Part shown: positions 5,183 to 27,465 of the stretch, piece after piece
How positions within the stretch are numbered: the stretch's first letter is position 1
Layout: each line of letters opens with the position of its first letter
DNA from: a virus
IMG/VR virus record: IMGVR_UViG_3300023174_000443
Span: 1 to 32,235 of that record
Strand: one strand, 5' to 3'
DNA: 32,235 bases
The notes under the pieces: generated by a model
What the model was told of the DNA's origin: nothing
The model's database searches: none
The model's input: the letters and a program-made list of their open reading frames with translations, nothing else
Translations under genes and position numbers: made by a program

Positions 5183-8182
5183 CTATCCGCGTATTCTTAG
5201 TATTGAGCTACCAAGAATTACCTGTCCAACTAGCACCGCTGCTACTAGAACTTCCTTAGCCTTTTGTCTTTCCTGTGGTGACATGTCCGCACCGATGTTT
5301 GCAAGCGCCTTAAGCACCTCGCACTGTTGCTCCTCGGTTAAACCTTCAATTGCCTGCTCGGGATTAAAGCAACCGGAGATCGCGCCGATCAACGCCGCAG
5401 GAGACTCGAGAGTTAACAACGCTGACGCAACCTCTGCGGTAATAACAACCGGGTTTCCGTTAAGGTCCTCGCGAACCTCAACCGGAATGGCCGGAGGCAG
5501 ATCTCGGTATTCAAGACCCGCCGCCTCGATGTTTGCCGCGGTAACCGGTGCACCTTCAGCGGACAAGACAAGCACATCAGCAACAAGGTCCTTCTCCGCG
5601 AGTGTAAACTTTCCATCAGCAGTAAGTGCGTCCGCTAGATTTGTGACCTCACTGATCGTGATCTCTCCGTCAGCGGAAAGAGCATCAACGACAAGCTCCG
5701 CCTCGGCGGAGGACAGTCCGCCCTCGGAGACAAGCTCTATAACGAGCGCGGTAACCTCCGCGTTTGTAACCTCACCGTCTGCGGACAGTGCGTCAAGAAT
5801 TAACTCTGCCTCGTTTGCAGTGATGCCTCCGTCTGTTAGGTTAGACGCAAGATCTGAGATCTCGGATACGGATATATCGCCGTCAGATAAGAGTGCGTCA
5901 AGCACTGCCTCCGCGTCTGCGTCGGTAAGAGCTCCGTCGTTTATAAGATCCTCAACGGCCTGCTGTACCTCCTCGGCTGACATGTCGGTTGTATTCTCAT
6001 CAGCAGTCGTATCGGTATTATCAGATGTATCAGTCGTATCAGATGTATCAGTCGTATCGGTAGTGGTCGTATCTGTCGTATCTGTTGATGTTGTATCTGT
6101 TGATGTTGTGTCAACCGGAGCATCAAAGGTAAGGTCAGGTGCAGTTACGTATGAAGGCTGCGACGGAGCTTGAACTACCTCATCGGCTGGAATAATAACA
6201 ACAACCTCGGAGTACTGGCTTACAGGACCGGACCAGTTTGCAACGCGTATCGTATATGTTGCTCCCTCGGTTAAACCTGTTAGTTGAATTGAGTCAGGTG
6301 CGCCGTCGGTGTTGTAGGTTCCTCCTGCGTACGGGTTCACCGCGTCTGGGTCATCGGTGATGACCTGGTAGAACCAGGTGTTTGCGTTATATCCTGTTGG
6401 AAGCTCGGGAGATATCGTGACGGTAGTTCCCTCAACGACCGGCTCCGCGAGTATCGGCGCAGGTGTCGGAACGTTGTCGTTTATCGCCTGGGTAAGAGTT
6501 GTTGCGCGCCCGTTAAGAAGAGTCTGCAGGTTGTTCTTGTTGTTCGTCGCGGAGTTAAGGGCTCCGGTCAGTGTGTTGTTCTGTGACTGCAGGGTTGATA
6601 GGGCGGAGTTGTTCACCGCGTTTTGTGCTACCACCGGAGTCAGACTTGAGTTCAACTGAGCGATGGTTGCGTTTGCCGCGTCAACCGCTGCCTGCACTCC
6701 GGAGATACTTGAGTCAACCATCGGAACAAAGTCCGCTCCTTGACTTATCTGTCCGGCAAAGCCGGCGCCTGGGTTTGTGTCGGTGATGCTTGTAACTGCT
6801 CCGTTGGTTGTCTGGCGGTAGTTAAATCTTGCCTGGTTTGGAATCGGTCCGATCGCGGATACGCTGGCCTTCCACGCTCCGTCGGTTGGGTTAACGTCCG
6901 CGTTGAAGCGAATCTGCACCATCTGGGTTGATGCGTCCTGCTGCGGATATGGACGAACGTCCCACGCGATGTCTAAACTTGACGCGGTGGTTGCGTAAGT
7001 AATTCCTGTGCCCGTGCTCCACGTAGTCCAGTCCCATCCCGCGATGGACACGGAGGGAGCGTTTGGAGTTTGGTAGTAGATCCAGCCTTCGTTAACGCCA
7101 AAGGTAATCGTCGCGTTTGATCCAACGTATACGTTGTTATATAAGGTACCGCCCATCTGAAGGTTGAACGGCAGGTTCATGCGTACGCCCGCGTCGTCAA
7201 CACCCGCAAGTACGTTCGTGCTTGCTCCAATGGTTGCCTGCAGCGCGTTCACCGCGTTCTGCGCGTTGTCGATCGCGATGTTTGCCTGGGTTAGCTCTGT
7301 CTGCGCGGTTGCCTGCGCGGTAACCGCCTCGGTGCGTGCGGTTGAAAGTTGGGTAACCTCGGTCTGCGCGGTGGAGATAAGCGCGGTGGTCGTGTCAATT
7401 GCCGCCTGCGCGTCGGTGACGGTTAACTTCGCGTCGGAGACAACCTGCGAGGACTGGTCGATCGGAGTCACCGCGAGGTCAACGTTGTTAATTGTCGTGA
7501 TCGCGGTTTGCACCTCATTTACCTTTGAGGTTGAAAGCGTAACGGATGAGGTTGCGTTTGAGACGGCGGACTGTGCGTCGGCGCGCTCCGCCTGCGCCTG
7601 CGAGATCTCGGTAGTTGCGTTCGCGGTGGCGTCAACAGCCTGTTGAACCTCGGTGGTTGCAAGAGCGAGCGCGTCGTTAACCGCCTGCTGCTGCGGAGAG
7701 ACAACAACCTGCTCCTGCGATGTTCCGTCGGTGGCGTAGGCAACGTCCTGGCCAACGACAAATATGAGCGCGGATATAAATAGGCTTCCAATAAAAACCC
7801 TGGCGACGGAGGCTACCCTAGAAAAAAGTGTGTTATTATATCTACAGGTACTAGAGACGAAGGGAGACGTAGATGGATTGGATGAGCTTTGCGCTTGGTT
7901 TCTTTGTAAACTTTGCGGTAATTGGAGTTGTGGCCGTTGCTGTTGCGGCGAAAACAGCGGGGAAGAAGTAGGAGATGCCTCGTAGGAAGAGGACGTTGCT
8001 TGTTTTGGTCGGGCTGGTGCTTGCCGTGTTCGCGGGGCACCTTGCTCTGAGGGAGTTGTTTCGTCGGTCTGTTTTACAGGACGGCGAGGACGCCCAGGAC
8101 GTGTTTGGTTCTTAGTCCGGACGTTATTACTGCTGTCATTTAGTGTCTCGTGCTCTCCCCCACGGTGAGCTTTACGGGGCAC
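5183..8182 (-). CDS. Giant secreted or surface multidomain coiled-coil protein; 5' end uncertain
   Basis: Up to 999 residues from the GTG at 8182. In order: a Pro/Gln/Ser-rich segment (1-110); a hydrophobic signal or anchor segment at about 127-149 ending in VAYA, a plausible signal-peptidase site; an Ala/Gln/Thr coiled coil to about 330; a beta-rich domain at about 340-490 (NVYVGSNATITFG, AGWDWTTWSTG); a second coiled coil; a fibronectin-III-like domain at about 570-670; a Thr/Asp-rich linker at 690-730; seven DG-x-[IVLF]-T/S units about 19-20 residues apart at about 735-865; and a hydrophobic C-terminus. The units resemble EF-hand loops, but positions 1 and 3 are mostly not acidic. The first 110 codons use mainly CAA for Gln and are unbiased, while the rest uses CAG almost throughout, so the true start may lie near 7800. 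The product is probably exported to the host envelope or is a fibre; function is unknown. Confidence 0.75.
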   Translation of the reverse strand: MPRKAHRGGEHETLNDSSNNVRTKNQTRPGRPRRPVKQTDETTPSEQGAPRTRQAPARPKQATSSSYEASPTSSPLFSPQQQRPQLQLPQSLQRNQAQSSSNPSTSPFVSSTCRYNNTLFSRVASVARVFIGSLFISALIFVVGQDVAYATDGTSQEQVVVSPQQQAVNDALALATTEVQQAVDATANATTEISQAQAERADAQSAVSNATSSVTLSTSKVNEVQTAITTINNVDLAVTPIDQSSQVVSDAKLTVTDAQAAIDTTTALISTAQTEVTQLSTARTEAVTAQATAQTELTQANIAIDNAQNAVNALQATIGASTNVLAGVDDAGVRMNLPFNLQMGGTLYNNVYVGSNATITFGVNEGWIYYQTPNAPSVSIAGWDWTTWSTGTGITYATTASSLDIAWDVRPYPQQDASTQMVQIRFNADVNPTDGAWKASVSAIGPIPNQARFNYRQTTNGAVTSITDTNPGAGFAGQISQGADFVPMVDSSISGVQAAVDAANATIAQLNSSLTPVVAQNAVNNSALSTLQSQNNTLTGALNSATNNKNNLQTLLNGRATTLTQAINDNVPTPAPILAEPVVEGTTVTISPELPTGYNANTWFYQVITDDPDAVNPYAGGTYNTDGAPDSIQLTGLTEGATYTIRVANWSGPVSQYSEVVVIIPADEVVQAPSQPSYVTAPDLTFDAPVDTTSTDTTSTDTTDTTTTDTTDTSDTTDTSDNTDTTADENTTDMSAEEVQQAVEDLINDGALTDADAEAVLDALLSDGDISVSEISDLASNLTDGGITANEAELILDALSADGEVTNAEVTALVIELVSEGGLSSAEAELVVDALSADGEITISEVTNLADALTADGKFTLAEKDLVADVLVLSAEGAPVTAANIEAAGLEYRDLPPAIPVEVREDLNGNPVVITAEVASALLTLESPAALIGAISGCFNPEQAIEGLTEEQQCEVLKALANIGADMSPQERQKAKEVLVAAVLVGQVILGSSILRIRG
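7835..7848 (-). promoter_or_regulatory. Candidate promoter for the giant surface protein
   Basis: On the minus strand CCTGTAGATATAAT resembles the window's promoter motif and includes a perfect TATAAT. It sits inside the long open frame, just upstream of the signal-peptide codons. If active, it would mean the protein starts near 7800-7830. However, no ATG, GTG or TTG is in frame there. Confidence 0.35.
7873..7971 (+). CDS. 32-residue membrane microprotein antisense to the surface-protein 5' end
   Basis: It begins MDWMSFALGFFVNFAVIGVV and ends KTAGKK: one hydrophobic helix followed by a basic tail. AGGGAG lies 7 nt before the ATG, and codon use matches genuine small membrane proteins of the window (GCG, GTT, AAC). 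It lies wholly antisense to the proposed N-terminus of the 5183-8182 gene, so at most one is likely to be used there. The following ORF has the same style, which supports a two-gene unit. Confidence 0.42.
   Translation: MDWMSFALGFFVNFAVIGVVAVAVAAKTAGKK
7975..8115 (+). CDS. 46-residue membrane microprotein, second of the antisense pair
   Basis: It begins MPRRKRTLLVLVGLVLAVFA: a basic N-terminus, one TM helix, then an acidic tail (LQDGEDAQDVFGS). This is a normal small membrane-protein layout. It starts 3 bp after the preceding TAG with GGAG immediately before the ATG, which is tight spacing. A hairpin plus T-tract lies about 35 bp downstream. Function is unknown; spanin- or holin-accessory roles are conceivable but unsupported. 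Confidence 0.4.
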   Translation: MPRRKRTLLVLVGLVLAVFAGHLALRELFRRSVLQDGEDAQDVFGS

Positions 8183-16519: not shown

Positions 16520-18346
16520 GTGGGACACATAAAGGTATCCGCAACTCGTGCGGAACGTACACCTTCAGAGTGGCTGCCAACTGGCGCACGCATTGGTGAA
16601 CTAGTAAACACCTGGGCAGGACGCTCAGATATTGTTGCATACGTTGGACCCGGAGCTGGTGGACCAACCCCAGCCTGTTTTAATCCAATATGCGCCGAGG
16701 TTGAGATTAACATTGACGCTGCCTTTGGTAAAGGCATCACACCTGAGATGATTGGTGATCTAACCAATCGTGATAACTTATTCGAGTGGCCTAGAGCTTC
16801 CGGTGCAATATTCCATGAAGCGCTACACGCACGCTACTCACGCTATTCCCTTGAGGCTGCACAAAAAGAACTTTCAAAGTATGAGTTCCAGGCATTCATG
16901 TCCCTTGAGGAGTCTCGTATTGAAAAGCATGGAGTTGATAACTTCCCAGCTAATCGAGTCTTCCTACGCGCCTGCGCATTGGAAATAGTTCTACATGATA
17001 TTCAAGAGCAAGCAGAGCAACACCTTGCGCATGGAGTTCGTTCCATCGCAGGTCTTGCCGCACTTACCTGTGCTCGTGTTGATGCTGGTTCTCTTGATAC
17101 AGAAGACATTGAAGAGATTAAGGCAATTGTAATTGAGCACCTAGGTCAAGATGTCTACGATTCAATTCGTCAGATCTGGATCAAGTTCCAATCTCATGAC
17201 AACCATACAGATCCAAGGTACCTATACGAACTTGCACGCGAGTGGGAGAAGATTCTCTCTCAGCTTGCCAAGGAGACCGGCGAGCAACCTGAGGTTGGCA
17301 TGCCTGCAGATAAAGGAATCTTAATTCTTATTGACGCAGTGATGGAAGATCTAAAGGAAGCTATTAAGGAGGCAGCGTCTAACGTTGCGATTGCCACAGG
17401 TGATGAGGTCCAGGATCAAGAACAAAAGGAAGATTGGCAGAAGGTTGTTGATCTACGTAGCAAGGCTGCGCGTCAACAACGTGATCACGAGCAGGTAGCT
17501 CATGATGTGTTCTCTAAGTCTACCACAGAGATTAGCTCTACAGGTAGTGGATCATTACTTAAGGAGACTCGTTCTCCAACTCCTGCTGAGCGAGCTGCCG
17601 CCGTCAAGATTGCTCAACTACTTGAGAAGGCTAAGTACCGTGAGCGCGATGAGACTGAGATTCAGTCTATACTTCCTCCTGGACGTCTACGCACTCGCGC
17701 AGTAGTTCAACAGGCTGCCTACAAGGCACAGGGCTCAATGATGAACGCAGAACCTTGGAGACGTACAGTGCGCAAGCACACTGATGATCCAACACTGAAG
17801 GTCGGTGTGATGGTCGACATCTCCGGATCTATGAGTGCAGCAATGGAACCTATGGCAGCAACTGCCTGGGCGATGAGTGAAGCTGCTCGTCGTGTTCAAG
17901 GTCGTTGCGCGATGGTCTACTATGGTTCAGGTGTGTTCCCTACTCTTAAGCCAGGGCAACATCTTGATCAGGTAAACGTCTACACTGCTCCTGACGCTAC
18001 CGAGAAGTTTGATAAGGCATTCAAGTCTCTTGATGGTTCTCTTGGTCTACTACAAAGTACCGGCGCTCGTCTACTTGTGGTAGTGAGTGATGGTGTCTAT
18101 ACTGAAACCGAGCTTGATAACGCTAAGCACTGGGTTCGTGAGTGTGAACGTAATGGAGTTGCAGTCCTATGGTTATCATACGAGAATGAAGGGTACAACC
18201 CTCATCGTGGATACCTTGAAAAGATTACTGAAGGTACAGCAACAGTTGTACTAAATAATCTAAAGGATCCAGCAGCTGCCGCGCTACAGATTGGTCAGTC
18301 AGCAGCAAAAGCTCTAGAAAAGATTGGCAGAAAGAACGCTGCCTAA
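16520..18346 (+). CDS. vWA-domain protein with HEXXH motif, CobT-like partner of the MoxR ATPase
   Basis: 608 residues from a GTG correctly spaced after GGAAGGA. Residues 99-103 read HEALH, a zinc-metalloprotease-type HEXXH, followed about 30 residues later by a LEESRIEKHG segment that could supply the third ligand. A long helical middle follows, then a C-terminal vWA domain with a MIDAS motif DISGSMS at about 433-439 and a later VVVSDGVYTE near 520. MoxR plus vWA pairs form chaperone-like machines, as in cobaltochelatase CobS-CobT and RavA-ViaA. HEXXH together with vWA is also known in phage and bacterial homologues. Whether the HEXXH is catalytic is unknown. Confidence 0.85.
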   Translation: MGHIKVSATRAERTPSEWLPTGARIGELVNTWAGRSDIVAYVGPGAGGPTPACFNPICAEVEINIDAAFGKGITPEMIGDLTNRDNLFEWPRASGAIFHEALHARYSRYSLEAAQKELSKYEFQAFMSLEESRIEKHGVDNFPANRVFLRACALEIVLHDIQEQAEQHLAHGVRSIAGLAALTCARVDAGSLDTEDIEEIKAIVIEHLGQDVYDSIRQIWIKFQSHDNHTDPRYLYELAREWEKILSQLAKETGEQPEVGMPADKGILILIDAVMEDLKEAIKEAASNVAIATGDEVQDQEQKEDWQKVVDLRSKAARQQRDHEQVAHDVFSKSTTEISSTGSGSLLKETRSPTPAERAAAVKIAQLLEKAKYRERDETEIQSILPPGRLRTRAVVQQAAYKAQGSMMNAEPWRRTVRKHTDDPTLKVGVMVDISGSMSAAMEPMAATAWAMSEAARRVQGRCAMVYYGSGVFPTLKPGQHLDQVNVYTAPDATEKFDKAFKSLDGSLGLLQSTGARLLVVVSDGVYTETELDNAKHWVRECERNGVAVLWLSYENEGYNPHRGYLEKITEGTATVVLNNLKDPAAAALQIGQSAAKALEKIGRKNAA

Positions 18347-18400: not shown

Positions 18401-18444
18401 GATCTAATTAACAAACCAAAATGACAAAAAGAAAGAAGGACAAC

Positions 18445-19365
18445 ATGAAGAACAAGATAATCGTTGCGGCGATAGCCTCAATGTTAATAGCTGGGCTAGC
18501 AGGTCCGGTAAGTGCTACACCACAAAAAACCTTGGTCATTATTGACTCAGGAGTTAACTCTCAGCTTGACTGGGTAAAGAATGCACTTGTTGATGAGGCA
18601 TGCTTTATTGAGTTCGGCAAGTGTCCAAATGGACAACAGTCAATGACTGGCCCAGGAGCTGCAACACTTGCGGCGACTGACGCAGCCAAGGACAAAACGT
18701 TCAGCCACGGAACGCAGATGGCTTCAGTTGCAGTTGCGGTTAACCCTGGAGTTAAGATAGCTGCGGTTCGTGTCGTAGGTATGTCTGACAAGGGCTTTGC
18801 CAATACCTACAGAACTAACTCGTTGGCTCCAGCTCTCGATTGGGTTATTGCAAATGCTGCACGACTAAACGTCGGCGCGGTGTCGATCTCGCTTGGACGT
18901 TCGTACTCAGAAGCTACGTGTCCGGTTGAGGCTCCGCTGCAATCTCAAATTATTGCGTTGAAGCAAAACAACATCGGCGTGTTTATCGCTGCCGGCAACG
19001 GGTCAAATCCAACCAAGGTTGACTATCCGGCGTGTATACCTGAGGCAATAGCTGTCGGAGCAACGGACACACAATATTCATTGCGCGGTGTGACCGGATG
19101 GATATATCCTGTGATGCGTATCTCAAACGGTGGCGCGGATCTAGATCTATATGCCCTGGGCAAGTACACCACGATCGGTCTAGACGGTAAACCTGTCGTA
19201 GCCATTGGTACCTCCGCGGCAACAGCTGCGGTAGCCTCCAAGTGGACTCAGGCGATCGGACAAGGCGGCACGTATGATTCCGTATGGACATCATTCACAG
19301 CCGGGCTAGGAAACGCGTATCGGTCATTAACCGATGTGGTTGCCAAGCAATTCATAATATCCTGA
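18445..19365 (+). CDS. Secreted subtilisin-like (S8) serine protease
   Basis: 306 residues from the ATG after AGAAGGACAAC. Starting at the upstream ATG (18421) would add eight mostly basic residues. A signal peptide (MKNKIIVAAIASMLIAGLAG, then PVSA) probably cleaves after residue 24. The catalytic set is complete: Asp34 in VIIDSGVN, His88 in SHGTQMAS, the oxyanion Asn185 in AAGNGS, and Ser257 in GTSAATAA. At about 280 mature residues with no clear prodomain it is compact for the family. It acts outside the cytoplasm, perhaps on host surface proteins or on phage tail proteins. Subtilases are uncommon in phages. Confidence 0.9.
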   Translation: MKNKIIVAAIASMLIAGLAGPVSATPQKTLVIIDSGVNSQLDWVKNALVDEACFIEFGKCPNGQQSMTGPGAATLAATDAAKDKTFSHGTQMASVAVAVNPGVKIAAVRVVGMSDKGFANTYRTNSLAPALDWVIANAARLNVGAVSISLGRSYSEATCPVEAPLQSQIIALKQNNIGVFIAAGNGSNPTKVDYPACIPEAIAVGATDTQYSLRGVTGWIYPVMRISNGGADLDLYALGKYTTIGLDGKPVVAIGTSAATAAVASKWTQAIGQGGTYDSVWTSFTAGLGNAYRSLTDVVAKQFIIS

Positions 19366-20743: not shown

Positions 20744-20912
20744 GCTTGCGGCAGGCATCTGGGAAATTAAGGATGTCCATACCGGAGAGCGAATCTCAAA
20801 GTTTAGGGCGCGCAAGCGTGCGGACGTTGACCGGATGCTGCAGATGGCTTCCATCGGGCTAAAGCGTCCACTGTCTGATTTTGAAGCTGTATACCTAACA
20901 GATTGGGAATAA
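20730..20912 (+). CDS. 60-residue hypothetical protein
   Basis: TTG start at 20730 with GGGAGG 8 nt upstream, inside the end of the DUF3846-like gene. The product begins MSNSKLAAGIWEIKDVHTGE, then a basic helix (KFRARKRADVDRMLQMA) and SDFEAVYLTDWE. The W-E-I-x-D-x-x-T-G-E opening suggests a small beta hairpin, and the KFRARKRAD segment could contact nucleic acid. Function unknown. Confidence 0.62.
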   Translation: MSNSKLAAGIWEIKDVHTGERISKFRARKRADVDRMLQMASIGLKRPLSDFEAVYLTDWE

Positions 20913-20914
20913 CC

Positions 20915-21139
20915 TTGAAGGACGGCATGGAATTAGTCCTAACCGACCGGTGTGACCGGTGTGGCTCGCAGGCACAGGTGCGTGCTACGACGTCGATGGG
21001 CATGCTTTTATTTTGTGGTTATCACGCTCGTAAACATTCATCAGCCTTATCAAATCAAACAACTACGATCTATGACCCCAACGATAGCATGGTGTCATAC
21101 GCGTACCTAATGAGGGGGCGCAATAAACCTCCAGATTAG
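20915..21139 (+). CDS. DUF7455-like zinc protein
   Basis: 74 residues from the TTG at 20915, which lies 2 bp after the upstream stop. A TTG at 20903 and an ATG at 20927 (behind AAGGAC) are alternatives. CDRCGSQAQVRA and LLFCGYHARKHSS give the C-x2-C ... C-x2-H zinc site of the DUF7455 family, with an IYDPND continuation like the 3325 gene. It is the best family match of the three paralogues here. Small size and Zn site suggest a regulatory partner role, not established. Confidence 0.8.
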   Translation: MKDGMELVLTDRCDRCGSQAQVRATTSMGMLLFCGYHARKHSSALSNQTTTIYDPNDSMVSYAYLMRGRNKPPD

Positions 21140-21145
21140 GAATAA

Positions 21146-21159
21146 CCTGATATAATTCA
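21146..21159 (+). promoter_or_regulatory. Extended -10 promoter of the noncoding RNA
   Basis: CCTGATATAATTCA. No ACGACGAAAGGA leader and no coding gene follow for 335 bp; instead a structured RNA ends at a terminator near 21438. Confidence 0.72.
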
Positions 21160-21162
21160 ACT

Positions 21163-21440
21163 ATAACTAAATAAAAGGATTGGACTAACCAAGCTCGAAG
21201 GTGTAAGGGTTCCACATGGTGGAGTACTCCCGATAAGCTAGTACGGTGCGGAAAGGGTAGCAACTGTATGTCATAAGACCGCTGCATTGCTCAGTGTTAT
21301 CCGTAGAGACTCTACCAAGACAGGACAAGGTCGTAAGACTAAGGTTCTTGAGGTCGGACCAAAGAGTTGAGGGAGAGACGCCTGTCCAGTAGTTGTGGGA
21401 TCAGTTTTCATTCGACATGGGCTGGTCCCACTCTTATTTT
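21163..21440 (+). ncRNA. Structured noncoding RNA of about 280 nt, unknown class
   Basis: A dedicated promoter at 21146 and a 10-bp terminator stem at 21395-21431 bound a region with no plausible gene. Helices visible by eye are CCAC-ATG-GTGG (21212-21222), GTACT/AGTAC (21224-21228 with 21240-21244), GCGG/CCGC (21248-21251 with 21279-21282), GTAGA/TCTAC (21303-21315), and GACAGG/CCTGTC (21319-21324 with 21381-21386). The last encloses a stem capped by a GTAA tetraloop (21333-21336) and a GGTTC/GGACC stem. I tested it by eye against RNase P RNA, tmRNA, SRP RNA and group I intron signatures and found none. Size and structure suggest a regulatory RNA, decoy or scaffold. Confidence 0.75.
21395..21438 (+). 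terminator. Terminator of the noncoding RNA
   Basis: GTGGGATCAG (21395-21404) pairs with CTGGTCCCAC (21422-21431), ten base pairs with one wobble, followed by TCTTATTTT. Confidence 0.82.
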
Positions 21441-21456
21441 ACTTTATGGAAGAAAA

Positions 21457-21470: not shown

Positions 21471-21494
21471 CCTTACAACGACGAAAGGATGAAC

Positions 21495-21722
21495 ATGAAG
21501 GTATCAGAAGCGATTAAGGCTCTTCAAGGATATGACCTTGATGAGGAGATAATGATTCAGTGGTACGCCAAGGAACACTCAGAATACATGGAGGACGATG
21601 AAACTCCTGTTAACGTGTGGAACCGTGCGGTTGAACTTTTTGAAGCTGACCCATGCGACGCCGAGTCATTCGGTTTTGTTGACTGCCTTGATAAGGCAAG
21701 AGACGAAGTAGAAAATGGCTAA
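21495..21722 (+). CDS. Acidic hypothetical protein
   Basis: 75 residues starting MKVSEAIKALQGYDLDEEIM. An in-frame ATG 6 bp upstream is too close to the AAAGGA RBS. The opening V-S-E-A-I-x-x-L-x-x-x-D-x-D-E-x-I pattern occurs in many small phage proteins of unknown role; the body is acidic (EHSEYMEDDETPVNVW). It overlaps the start of the sigma-like gene by 8 bp and is probably coupled to it. Confidence 0.75.
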   Translation: MKVSEAIKALQGYDLDEEIMIQWYAKEHSEYMEDDETPVNVWNRAVELFEADPCDAESFGFVDCLDKARDEVENG

Positions 21723-22759: not shown

Positions 22760-22978
22760 ATGGATACCGGTGTAAAGGAACAGGTTGAGGTAAGAGATCC
22801 CTCGTTTACCGAGTGGATCCAGTGTGACTCATGTAGCGTTGCTCGCGCCACCTGGAAGATTATTGGAGATTCCGGTGAGCTATTTCTATGCGGCCATCAC
22901 AAGACCCGCCATGAGGCTGGGCTTACCCAGTGGGCAAAGGAATTTGTTGAACTGGAGCTAAAGACTTCAAAGTCCTGA
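22760..22978 (+). CDS. DUF7455-like zinc protein, second plus-strand copy
   Basis: 72 residues with CDSCSVARATW and LFLCGHHKTRHEAGL: the same C-x2-C ... C-x2-H arrangement as the 20915 and 3325 products. The N-terminus differs (VKEQVEVRDPSFTEWI). The TGA stop is shared with the next promoter. Retaining three related copies suggests distinct partners for each. Confidence 0.78.
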   Translation: MDTGVKEQVEVRDPSFTEWIQCDSCSVARATWKIIGDSGELFLCGHHKTRHEAGLTQWAKEFVELELKTSKS

Positions 22979-25132: not shown

Positions 25133-25160
25133 GCGCGTAGGATACAGTTGTCCTACGCGC
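25133..25160 (+). terminator. Perfect 10-bp hairpin
   Basis: GCGCGTAGGA (25133-25142) pairs exactly with TCCTACGCGC (25151-25160). Only TTAGGATTTG follows, a weak T stretch. It could terminate the upstream unit or serve as a 5' structure for the protease gene that starts 20 bp later. Confidence 0.6.
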
Positions 25161-25180
25161 TTAGGATTTGTGGGGGAACT

Positions 25181-25744
25181 ATGACTACTCTTGCGGCCAT
25201 ACAAGGTGATGGCTGGTGCACGATCGGTGCGGACAGTCAAGCTAGCGATGAATCTGGTTTCATGATGCAGATTGTCACAGGCAAAACATTTAAGAACGGA
25301 CCTACGCTAATCGCAGGTGCAGGTGCGGTGCGTGGAATCAACATACTTCAGTTTGGTTGGTCAGCACCTCGCTTCGCCGGCAGGTCTACAGACGAATACA
25401 TGACAAAGGTATTTATACCTAGCATGCGACAGGCGTTTATTAAATCTGGATACGACATGAAGGACGATGGAGACGTAGCGTACAACGACAACAACTTCAT
25501 CGTTGCGGTTAAGGGAAATCTTTACAGCATTGCCGAGGATTACTCGTGGGAAAGATGTAAGCGTGGACTCTACGTTGCCGGTTCAGGAGGCAAGTACGCT
25601 CTTGGAGCTCTCGGAGCTCTACAGGCTGAAAAAGCTAAGAACGTTGAGGAGGCTGAGAAGCTGCTGCGAAAGGCAATTGAGGTTTCTATACGGTGGGATG
25701 CCTACTCAGGTGGAGAGATAACGATCATGTCTCAGAGAGGCTAG
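25181..25744 (+). CDS. Proteasome-beta / HslV-like Ntn-hydrolase
   Basis: 187 residues from the ATG at 25181 (GGGGGAACT before it). After Met removal the protein starts Thr-Thr (TTLAAIQGDGWCTIGADSQA), the classical N-terminal nucleophile arrangement of the T1 family, with Asp at position 18. GKTFKNGPTLIAGAGAVRG supplies the expected Lys and glycine-rich turn, and GLYVAGSGGKYALGALGAL matches the later G-S-G-x-x-x-A-x-G-A segment. It needs no propeptide cleavage beyond Met. No regulatory ATPase of HslU or Mpa type is in the window. It could form its own chamber or mix with host proteasome subunits, an inference that depends on host. Confidence 0.85.
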   Translation: MTTLAAIQGDGWCTIGADSQASDESGFMMQIVTGKTFKNGPTLIAGAGAVRGINILQFGWSAPRFAGRSTDEYMTKVFIPSMRQAFIKSGYDMKDDGDVAYNDNNFIVAVKGNLYSIAEDYSWERCKRGLYVAGSGGKYALGALGALQAEKAKNVEEAEKLLRKAIEVSIRWDAYSGGEITIMSQRG

Positions 25745-25788: not shown

Positions 25789-26016
25789 ATGGACGTAAAA
25801 AACATGACGTACGTAGTTCAAACACCTACCTGCCGACTTTGCAACAAAACCGGTACGGTTGAGATTCCAGCCGATGGTTTCTTTAAGTGGAACTTTGGCA
25901 TGTTAATTCAAGACGCGCTACCTGATTTGGACAAATCACTACGAGAACAAATGATGACCGGAACTCACCCGAGTTGCTGGGAACTAATGATGCACGATGA
26001 AGAGGACAACGAGTAA
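25789..26016 (+). CDS. Hypothetical zinc-motif protein, first gene of the phosphatase-deacetylase operon
   Basis: 75 residues from the ATG at 25789; the GTG 18 bp upstream is in the leader. CRLCNKTGTVEIPADG followed by FKWNFGMLIQDALPDL, REQMMTGTHPSCW: a C-x2-C knuckle plus a later H-P-S-C that may complete a zinc site. The C-x2-C-x-x-T ... W ... I-Q-x-A-x-P ... G-x-H-x-x-C-W pattern resembles a common actinophage hypothetical. It overlaps the phosphatase ATG by one base. Confidence 0.78.
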   Translation: MDVKNMTYVVQTPTCRLCNKTGTVEIPADGFFKWNFGMLIQDALPDLDKSLREQMMTGTHPSCWELMMHDEEDNE

Positions 26017-26537
26017 TGGAAATTGTAGAGGACAAAAACTTATACGCACCAGTTCACGATATTGGCTGGGACTTCCCCCTATGGAGTGAGATCCTCCCAG
26101 GTTTATGGCTTGGTGGTACGGATGACAATGACACGATTGAAACCGGTGTCAATGCGTACTTGCCACGTGTAATTACAAAGAATGAATTTGATACGGTGGT
26201 CACACTTTACTCATGGGCTCAACCTGTTGACTGGTTGGTCGAGGAGGCACGCTATGGATTCTACGATTCAGAGATCAGTCACATCGATTTTGATGCGGTT
26301 GAGAGAGCTGCAGAGTTTGCGTACAACGCCTGGAAGTCTGGTAAGCGTGTGTTAGTTCGCTGTCAGGCTGGAATAAATCGCTCAGGTCTTGTCATGGCTC
26401 ATGTTCTGATGAAGGACGGATACACGGCAAAGGGCGCGATAAATCTTATGCGGGAAAAAAGAAGTAAGGCTGTTTTATTAAACAACCACTTCGTTGATTA
26501 TTTAGTTATGTCCGAGGAGGTACCTAGTGCAAGATAA
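26016..26537 (+). CDS. Dual-specificity protein phosphatase-like
   Basis: 173 residues. The signature VRCQAGINRSG (C116, R122) is the C-x5-R-[ST] loop of cysteine-dependent phosphatases; the usual His before Cys is Arg here. EILPGLWLGG near the N-terminus is the standard opening strand of the family, and VVTLYSWAQP matches the next. An Asp in the YDSEISHIDFD stretch could be the general acid. Compact dual-specificity phosphatases occur in mycobacteria and their phages. Substrates might be host phosphoproteins or nucleotides. Cytoplasmic. The end overlaps the deacetylase start by 11 bp. Confidence 0.85.
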   Translation: MEIVEDKNLYAPVHDIGWDFPLWSEILPGLWLGGTDDNDTIETGVNAYLPRVITKNEFDTVVTLYSWAQPVDWLVEEARYGFYDSEISHIDFDAVERAAEFAYNAWKSGKRVLVRCQAGINRSGLVMAHVLMKDGYTAKGAINLMREKRSKAVLLNNHFVDYLVMSEEVPSAR

Positions 26538-27465
26538 GATACATGTAGCGTATGACGACGTGTACCTTGATTGGAAGCTAGGTGGTAGGACAACAGATTC
26601 ACATCCTACTAATCCTGTGCGTGCCAAGTACGCGACGCAACTTCTTTCTAACGATCATGAGCTTGTTATCGTAAAACCAGATATTCAAGAAGGCGATCGA
26701 GCTAGAGTTGAATCTATCCACGACAAGGACTATGTTTCTAGAGTTCTTGACGATGGCCATTGCGGCGAGTGGTACCCAGACCAGGTTGAGCTTGGAAAGG
26801 TTGCCCTTCACATGTTTGCCGGAACAGTTCGGTTAACAGAGAAGATGATTGCCGACGAGCTAAGGATTGGCTTTAATCCTCAGGGAGCTAAGCATCACGC
26901 TCAGTACGATCATAGCTCTGGCTTCTGCGTGTTTAACGACATGGCTTGGGCTGCAAAGGAATTTCAGAAAAATGGCATGAAGGTTATGTACATTGACTGG
27001 GACGCACATCACGGCGATGGCGTTGAAAACCTTTTGGCAGATGATCCTGATCTTGTGACGTGTTCTATTCACGACTCGGCTATCTTCCCTGGCACAGGAC
27101 TAAAAGGTCACTCGCCGAAAAAAGGAATATACAACTGGGCACTTGATCCAGCCAGCGGTGACGATACCTTTATGGCTGCCATGGGTGAGATTGAAACACT
27201 TGCCGATAAGATCAAGCCGGACGTAGTTCTGCTAGCTACCGGAGCCGATGCACATCGCACCGATCCGCTGTCTACGCTTAACTTTGACTACTACGGATAT
27301 GACTTTGCGGCTCGCACTGTTGGCCGAATTGCATCTTCCTACTCTCAAGGAAGAGTGCTCATCGGAGGAGCTGGTGGATACCAGCCGTTCGATCATACTC
27401 CTGCGATCTGGGCAAAGGTCGTAGACGCGGTCTACGAGGAGGTTTCACTTTTCGCAAGAAAGTGA
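26527..27465 (+). CDS. Histone-deacetylase-fold (AcuC / acetylpolyamine amidohydrolase-like) enzyme
   Basis: 312 residues from a GTG behind GAGGAGGTACCTA. All arginase/HDAC-fold catalytic elements are present: tandem His123-His124 (AKHHAQYDHSSGFC), zinc ligands Asp159 and His161 in IDWDAHHGDG, third ligand Asp241 in TGADAHRTDPL, and the transition-state Tyr285 in GGAGGYQP. A N-terminal HPTNPVRAK resembles the H-P-E-x-P-x-R of HDACs. The predicted reaction is Zn-dependent removal of acetyl groups from lysines, polyamines or similar amines. In bacteria AcuC reactivates acetyl-CoA synthetase. In a phage it may reverse host acetylation or salvage acetate; this is inference. Phage-borne copies are rare to my knowledge. 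Confidence 0.9.
   Translation: MQDKIHVAYDDVYLDWKLGGRTTDSHPTNPVRAKYATQLLSNDHELVIVKPDIQEGDRARVESIHDKDYVSRVLDDGHCGEWYPDQVELGKVALHMFAGTVRLTEKMIADELRIGFNPQGAKHHAQYDHSSGFCVFNDMAWAAKEFQKNGMKVMYIDWDAHHGDGVENLLADDPDLVTCSIHDSAIFPGTGLKGHSPKKGIYNWALDPASGDDTFMAAMGEIETLADKIKPDVVLLATGADAHRTDPLSTLNFDYYGYDFAARTVGRIASSYSQGRVLIGGAGGYQPFDHTPAIWAKVVDAVYEEVSLFARK

What the first reader, a model, noticed from the sequence alone, without database searches (positions are those of the whole stretch)
21146..21440. Independent, structured noncoding RNA of about 280 nt
The segment has its own promoter, no coding frame of merit, several helices including a GNRA-type tetraloop stem inside a long-range GACAGG/CCTGTC pairing, and a clean terminator. 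It lacks the marks of RNase P, tmRNA, SRP RNA or group I introns, and is much shorter than the GOLLD or ROOL phage RNAs. Among small early genes, it may regulate host or phage mRNAs or act as an anti-defence RNA. Best candidate here for an undescribed element.
Basis: partly seen in the sequence, partly recalled or inferred. Interest (0 to 1): 0.82.

Follow-up and report, generated by a model that had tools for sequence, protein, structure and literature searches.

The report
New structured phage RNA gene
A group of uncultured actinobacterial phages, known from metagenomes, carries a stand-alone gene for a folded RNA of about 280 bases that matches no catalogued RNA family and whose fold has been kept by compensating mutations across 23 diverged versions, so it is a real and previously undescribed RNA whose job in infection is still unknown.

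Summary
The finding holds: window 21148-21441 is an independent structured non-coding RNA gene of a new family. I found 23 distinct sequences in about 33 phage contigs, in five subtypes, none matching Rfam. A covariance model built only from subtype B finds the window at 21180-21390 (E 5e-6 in 507 kb). A model built only from subtypes C and D finds it again (E 6e-5 in 180 kb).
Shared fold: closing helix P1 (UUGGAC/GUCCAG), P2, and a P3 arm (P3a, a UAA/GAN-like internal loop, P3b, P3c). Every P1-P3 helix shows double-sided base changes. The 3' domain diverges towards background between subtypes.
Twenty of 22 members checked have a TATAAT 4-25 nt upstream. A strong terminator follows P1, and the next gene has its own promoter and differs between phages, which argues against a riboswitch. 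A tiny ORF, retron, intron or known RNA is not supported. Two relatives lost the RNA body but keep promoter and terminator.
Best guess for function (inferred, about 35%): a trans-acting accessory RNA that engages a host factor through the conserved 5' domain. No transcript has been seen.

The parts
21148..21156 (+). extended -10 promoter TGATATAAT of the RNA gene; expected transcript start about 21163
   Evidence: one of 17 TGNTATAAT sites against 1.1 expected; TATAAT lies 4-25 nt upstream of P1 in all 19 members and in L093
21180..21389 (+). RNA body, from P1 5' strand to P1 3' strand
   Evidence: R1, built from subtype B only: 21180-21390, 29.4 bits, E 5e-6; R3, built from subtypes C and D only: 21179-21389, 21.1 bits, E 6e-5
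21180..21185 (+). P1 5' strand UUGGAC
   Evidence: pairs with GUCCAG 21384-21389; varies to UGGGC/GCCCA, UUGGAAC/GUUCCAA and UUGAAC/GUUCAA in relatives
21189..21195 (+). P2 5' strand CCAAGCU (weak in the window: 5 of 7 pairs)
   Evidence: P2 is 6-7 bp with strong covariation in subtypes B, C, D and in L074
21200..21239 (+). P3 arm: P3a GGU/GCU, UAA/GAN-like internal loop GUAA/GAUAA, P3b GGG/CCC, P3c UCCAC-AUG-GUGGA
   Evidence: most conserved block; R2 (5' domain; the window is in its training set) gives 61.4 bits here; P3b changes to UGG/CCA and CGG/CCG and P3c to ACCGC/GCGGU, GCCAC/GUGGC and UCUGCC/GGCAGA
21245..21251 (+). P2 3' strand GGUGCGG, followed by the conserved AAAG joiner
   Evidence: alignment A5 and hand pairing
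21254..21258 (+). proposed P4 5' strand AGGGU, closing the 3' domain with ACGCCU 21378-21383
   Evidence: by position only in the window; P4 covaries in subtypes A and B
21259..21377 (+). variable 3' domain, including the lineage-specific GUC-GUAA-GAC hairpin 21330-21339
   Evidence: identity to other subtypes 28-42% against 28-29% shuffled
21384..21389 (+). P1 3' strand GUCCAG
21395..21441 (+). intrinsic terminator hairpin and U-rich tail
   Evidence: -19.4 kcal/mol; a terminator-like hairpin follows P1 in all 19 members

Best explanation
SHOWN BY SEQUENCE: window 21148-21441 is a stand-alone gene for a structured, non-coding RNA of a new family found in related uncultured actinobacterial phages; by its arrangement it must act in trans. 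Its own extended -10 promoter would start a transcript of about 275 nt, helix P1 clamps the two ends, and an intrinsic terminator follows. The fold has two parts: a conserved 5' domain (P2 and the P3 arm, with a UAA/GAN-like internal loop and a small P3c hairpin) and a fast-evolving 3' domain (P4-P8 in subtypes A and B). INFERRED (about 35%): the phage makes it to act on the host. The constant 5' domain is the handle for one conserved host factor (a protein or RNP), and the variable 3' domain shields, redirects or blocks it, as in a decoy or counter-defence RNA. This fits its dispensability, its loss in close relatives and its modular divergence. No target, expression or activity has been shown. 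The confidence below is for the shown part.
For: Homology across subtypes: R1 built from ten subtype-B sequences finds subtypes A (58-94 bits) and W (29-33 bits, window E 5e-6) and a new subtype C. R3 built from C and D finds the window, L067, L071, L076 and L085. Covariation: in the MAFFT alignment A2, 13 of 56 pairs have double-sided changes, 30 cells against 8.9 shuffled and 0-2 when the partner is slid; in A5, across subtypes, 24 cells against 6.3 shuffled and 0-6 slid. RNAalifold on C and D alone recovers P1, P2, P3a, P3b and P3c unprompted, 17 pairs with double-sided changes. Gene autonomy: a TATAAT 4-25 nt upstream and a terminator downstream in all 19 members; the next gene has its own -10 and differs between phages. 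Restriction: a signature scan of 84,980 bacterial and archaeal genomes gave two false hits in coding genes. Dispensability: L068/L053 and L070 join promoter to terminator with the body missing. Modularity: B against W is 52% in the 5' domain and 28% in the 3' domain (shuffled 30 and 28); A against C is 52% and 30%.
Against: No transcript data. The window's own P2 is weak (5 of 7 pairs) and its P4 is supported only by position; the window scores far lower than subtypes A and B. Alignment A4 was fitted to the model, so its larger counts lean towards it. In subtype D, L095 and L106 lack a TATAAT just upstream. The host-factor step rests only on pattern: no partner gene co-occurs consistently and no complement to phage genes beyond chance was found.
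Confidence: 0.88

Rival explanations
1. RNA-only assembly or scaffold in the manner of GOLLD and ROOL: the RNA folds into an ordered particle, perhaps a homo-oligomer, that holds or sequesters something during infection.
For: Phage-encoded, own promoter and terminator, multi-helix fold with a proposed loop pseudoknot in subtype B (AGGG/CCCU, AGAG/CUCU), a constant part and a variable part. GOLLD likewise has a conserved and a less conserved region (PMC12286853).
Against: Far smaller than either; no Rfam match; GOLLD and ROOL often lie near tRNA islands, whereas here there are only one or two tRNAs per genome, kilobases away. Nothing tests oligomerisation.
Confidence: 0.2
2. Antisense regulator: exposed loops pair with phage or host mRNAs to control translation or decay.
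For: Stand-alone RNA with its own promoter and terminator.
Against: The longest perfect complement to the window's + strand is 11 nt, the commonest value for shuffled RNA. Conserved positions lie mostly in helices and internal loops rather than in a free seed. The host transcriptome is unknown.
Confidence: 0.2
3. Ribozyme or RNA enzyme: the compact fold is catalytic, for example self-processing.
For: Complex fold; conserved internal loop in which UAA/GA changed jointly to UAC/AA in two lineages, L071 and L092.
Against: No match to any catalytic family; no obvious active site; in L076 P1 starts only 4 nt after TATAAT, leaving little room for 5' processing.
Confidence: 0.1
4. Dual-function or leader RNA that translates a tiny ORF from the AUG in the P3c loop (UAAGGG about 6 nt before AUG).
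For: AUG or GUG sits at the same place in subtypes A, B, C and W; peptides such as MGTLLPIS or MVEYSR.
Against: The peptide is not conserved between subtypes, the frame after the loop shifts, L092 loses the stop, L071 and L092 lose the AAGG, and subtype D has loop ACU or UUCUG with no start codon.
Confidence: 0.03
5. Riboswitch or attenuator of the downstream gene.
For: A structured RNA followed by a terminator and then a gene.
Against: The next gene has its own promoter after the terminator and differs between phages.
Confidence: 0.03

Closest known systems
GOLLD RNA (phage and prophage large ornate RNA)
   Same: phage-encoded, stand-alone, elaborate conserved fold, one constant and one variable region, unknown function
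   Different: many exceed 800 nt, often near tRNA islands, own Rfam model that does not match; here about 275 nt
ROOL RNA
   Same: phage-encoded structured RNA without a known protein partner
   Different: much larger (linker numbered 414-464 in the solved structure), forms an octameric cage, no covariance match here
Racr RNA anti-CRISPRs (PMC10651486)
   Same: phage ncRNA; a decoy logic would fit the guess made here
   Different: Racrs mimic CRISPR repeats; repeat mimicry was not tested here because the host and its arrays are unknown
Type III toxin-antitoxin RNA and phage RNA-based mimicry of it (PMC3475682)
   Same: an RNA that could neutralise a host protein
   Different: ToxI-type antitoxins are short tandem repeats (own knowledge); none seen here

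Membership tests
Any Rfam 15 family (RNase P, tmRNA, SRP, 6S, group I/II intron, riboswitches, ROOL, GOLLD, raiA) | match at or near the family's covariance score | tested here: not met
   window and members of subtypes A, B, C, D: nothing near a gathering score at E up to 10; 15 loci at gathering score gave only one tRNA
tRNA/tmRNA | ARAGORN call | tested here: not met
   none in the window; none at the RNA in the genome pieces scanned
GOLLD/ROOL-like ornate phage RNA | large size (hundreds of nt more than here) and tRNA-island neighbourhood | tested here: not met
   about 275 nt; one or two tRNAs per genome, kilobases away
GOLLD/ROOL-like ornate phage RNA | homo-oligomeric RNA particle | not testable with these tools
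   needs native gel, mass photometry or cryo-EM
Riboswitch or attenuator | controls the gene downstream in the same transcript | tested here: not met
   downstream gene differs between phages and has its own promoter
Retron msr-msd RNA | reverse transcriptase in the same genome, adjacent | tested here: not met
   no RVT_1 in four RNA-bearing records; the control search rings
Self-splicing intron | interrupts a gene; removal restores the exons; group I or II core | tested here: not met
   lies between genes with its own promoter and terminator; Rfam empty; losses leave promoter joined to terminator, not exons
Racr anti-CRISPR RNA | mimics a CRISPR repeat of the host | not tested
   host and its arrays unknown

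The most novel reading that the evidence does not exclude
A new functional class of phage RNA: a modular, host-directed RNA with a constant 5' docking domain and a fast-changing effector domain, acting as an RNA-based counter-defence or host-takeover factor in actinobacterial phages, or as a small ordered RNA particle.
Probability: 0.3. Interest if true: 0.85.

Novelty: new variant of a known kind. Interest (0 to 1): 0.66.

Why it matters
Phage structured RNAs larger than tRNAs are few (GOLLD, ROOL), and their functions are open. This family is compact, has five subtypes with strong covariation, sits in large uncultured phages, can be lost, and has recognisable empty sites. That makes comparison of RNA-bearing and RNA-lacking phages, SHAPE, pull-down and cryo-EM practical. 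Its split into a constant and a variable domain gives a directly testable idea about what is docked and what is varied.

Tried and rejected
Phage-collection DNA similarity: nothing useful. A 15-base exact pattern: 41 hits, mostly chance, one near-identical contig. Signature scan of bacterial and archaeal genomes: two false hits in coding genes (an oxidoreductase-like and a urease-like frame, judged by eye). Pattern hits L060, L062-L065, L109, L114, L123, L124, L136 and L139-L143 read by eye and rejected. Group I intron: suspected from eye-resemblance to the P, Q, R and S elements; not supported by Rfam. RNase P resemblance (GGAAAG, GUAAGGGU): not supported. Partner-gene search over four RNA-bearing and three apparently RNA-lacking genomes: an 82-aa and a 52-aa protein looked linked at first, but the 82-aa one is missing from the window and present in RNA-lacking L088, and one 'lacking' genome (L106) was later found to hold subtype D. 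Antisense targets in the window: no better than chance. Named phages DSL-LC01, Bricole, Typha, Pumpernickel, Sixama and GodonK: no convincing match with R1, R2 or R3. One model search of the window with filters off listed 57 matches; only the first is meaningful.

Full report
WHAT IS THERE. The window is a 32,235-base IMG/VR virus record. Between a small DUF7455 gene (20903-21139) and the small gene at 21489-21722 lies a non-coding stretch with an extended -10 promoter (TGATATAAT, 21148-21156), a body (21180-21389) and an intrinsic terminator (21395-21441). TGNTATAAT occurs 17 times in the window against 1.1 expected, 16 times on the + strand, so it is very likely a real promoter type of this phage. 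Single-sequence folding is not decisive (z = -1.57), and Rfam has nothing for it.

FINDING RELATIVES. The large protein at 16520-18346 (similar to phage genes annotated as AAA-ATPase or cobalamin biosynthesis; no Pfam hit) gave relatives at 64-99% protein identity. One of them, L051, held a diverged copy of the RNA. A signature from the two copies, GTAAGGGT...CTCCCGAYAAGC, found more. The small gene upstream (..VYLTDWE) gave 41 loci, in about half of which the RNA stands just downstream of it. In all I count 23 distinct sequences on about 33 contigs, in five subtypes: W (the window), A, B, C and D.

THE FOLD. Ten subtype-B sequences aligned by MAFFT without structure (A2) support a hand-made structure: 13 of 56 pairs change on both sides, 30 cells against 8.9 in shuffles and 0-2 when partners are slid. 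A model from these ten alone, R1, finds all A members tested, the W members including the window (29.4 bits, E 5e-6 over 507 kb) and a new subtype C. A model of the 5' domain, R2, then found subtype D in three records that had looked empty. RNAalifold on C and D alone returned the same P1, P2, P3a, P3b and P3c without being told, and the model made from it, R3, again finds the window (21.1 bits, E 6e-5). Two models that never saw a W sequence therefore converge on the same bases. E-values from these models are rough, because calibration was short.

HELIX BY HELIX. P1: UUGGAC/GUCCAG, UGGGC/GCCCA, UUGGAAC/GUUCCAA, UUGAAC/GUUCAA. P2: CUAAGUC/GACUUAG, CUGAAUC/GGUUCAG, CUAGACC/GGUCUAG, UCCAGC/GCUGGA, UCCUGA/UCAGGA. 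P3a: AGC/GCU, GGC/GCC, CC/GG. P3b: GGG/CCC, UGG/CCA, CGG/CCG. P3c: UCCC/GGGA, UCUC/GAGA, UCCAC/GUGGA, ACCGC/GCGGU, UCUGCC/GGCAGA. Between P3a and P3b lies an internal loop, RUAA on one side and GANAA on the other in most members, that looks like a UAA/GAN motif (named from memory); UAA/GA changes jointly to UAC/AA in L071 and L092. In subtypes A and B the 3' domain has P4, P6, P7 and P8 with double-sided changes and, in B, a proposed loop pseudoknot AGGG/CCCU changing to AGAG/CUCU. The window's 3' domain cannot be aligned to these with confidence; its P4 is placed by position only.

A SEPARATE GENE. All 19 members have TATAAT 4-25 nt before P1 and a strong hairpin with a U-rich tail directly after it; in L076 P1 begins only 4 nt after TATAAT. 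The next gene starts after its own -10 and is of many kinds. This argues against an RNA switch for one gene. In L068/L053 and L070 the body is gone while promoter and terminator remain: the unit is dispensable. Exceptions: L095 and L106 (subtype D) have no TATAAT directly upstream.

NOT CODING. No frame is shared. A tempting AUG in the P3c loop with UAAGGG upstream gives short peptides that differ between subtypes, and subtype D has no start codon there.

WHERE IT OCCURS. One copy per record where found; the five largest RNA-bearing records are 100-132 kb. It is absent, as far as these models see, from L052 (136 kb), from Actinomycetia phage DSL-LC01 and from five named actinophages. DSL-LC01 is a lake metagenome assembly (PMC10611076); that and the hosts of the more distant relatives suggest actinobacterial hosts, but the host of the window's phage is not shown.

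HOW IT MAY WORK. The 5' domain stays recognisable between subtypes (44-69% identity, shuffled 23-36%) while the 3' domain falls to or near background (26-43%, shuffled 24-32%). Inference: the 5' domain docks on something conserved, probably a host protein or RNP, and the 3' domain carries a changing function. A decoy or counter-defence role fits the gain and loss, but no test here separates it from an ordered RNA particle, an antisense regulator or a ribozyme. Function remains open; I put about 35% on the host-factor reading.

The GACAGG/CCTGTC pairing overlaps P1 and is lost in L071, as is the GTAA hairpin. The rest of the reading stands.

LIMITS. No expression data; one genome scan; no metagenome scan; alignment A4 is fitted to its model; several contigs are near-duplicates from related samples, so 33 contigs are not 33 independent events.

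Noticed in passing
L068 5181-5260 (=L053 6975-7048), L070 2122-2200: RNA body missing, yet the promoter and the terminator hairpin with its 16-17 nt loop TTTTCATTCGACATGG are kept almost unchanged; the short stub may itself be transcribed.
   Followed up: partly
window, 17 sites listed: A repeated extended -10 promoter TGNTATAAT before many small genes, 17 against 1.1 expected, 16 on the + strand.
   Followed up: yes
window 26527-27465: A phage-encoded histone-deacetylase-fold protein (Pfam PF00850, E 2e-54), next to a dual-specificity phosphatase-like protein at 26016-26537.
   Followed up: partly
window 25148-25744: A proteasome/HslV-like peptidase encoded by the phage; the same kind of gene is annotated in Actinomycetia phage DSL-LC01.
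   Followed up: no
window 18421-19365: A subtilase (Peptidase_S8, E 2.7e-12) with a signal-peptide-like start in a phage genome.
   Followed up: no
window 20903-21139 and 22760-22978: Two small proteins that both match phrog_1720; the first also matches DUF7455 and is itself absent from close relatives L002 and L053.
   Followed up: partly
L079 and L080, small hairpin inside P2: Two near-identical RNAs differ by a compensatory A-U to G-C change (GCACC/GGUAGC against GCGCC/GGCAGC).
   Followed up: yes
L095 2851-2970 and L106 2892-3011: Upstream of the subtype D RNA there is no TATAAT but another terminator-like hairpin, so these may use a different promoter or read-through.
   Followed up: no
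window 5183-8182, - strand: A 999-aa protein with long Thr/Asp- and Ala-rich low-complexity stretches on the opposite strand to most genes.
   Followed up: no
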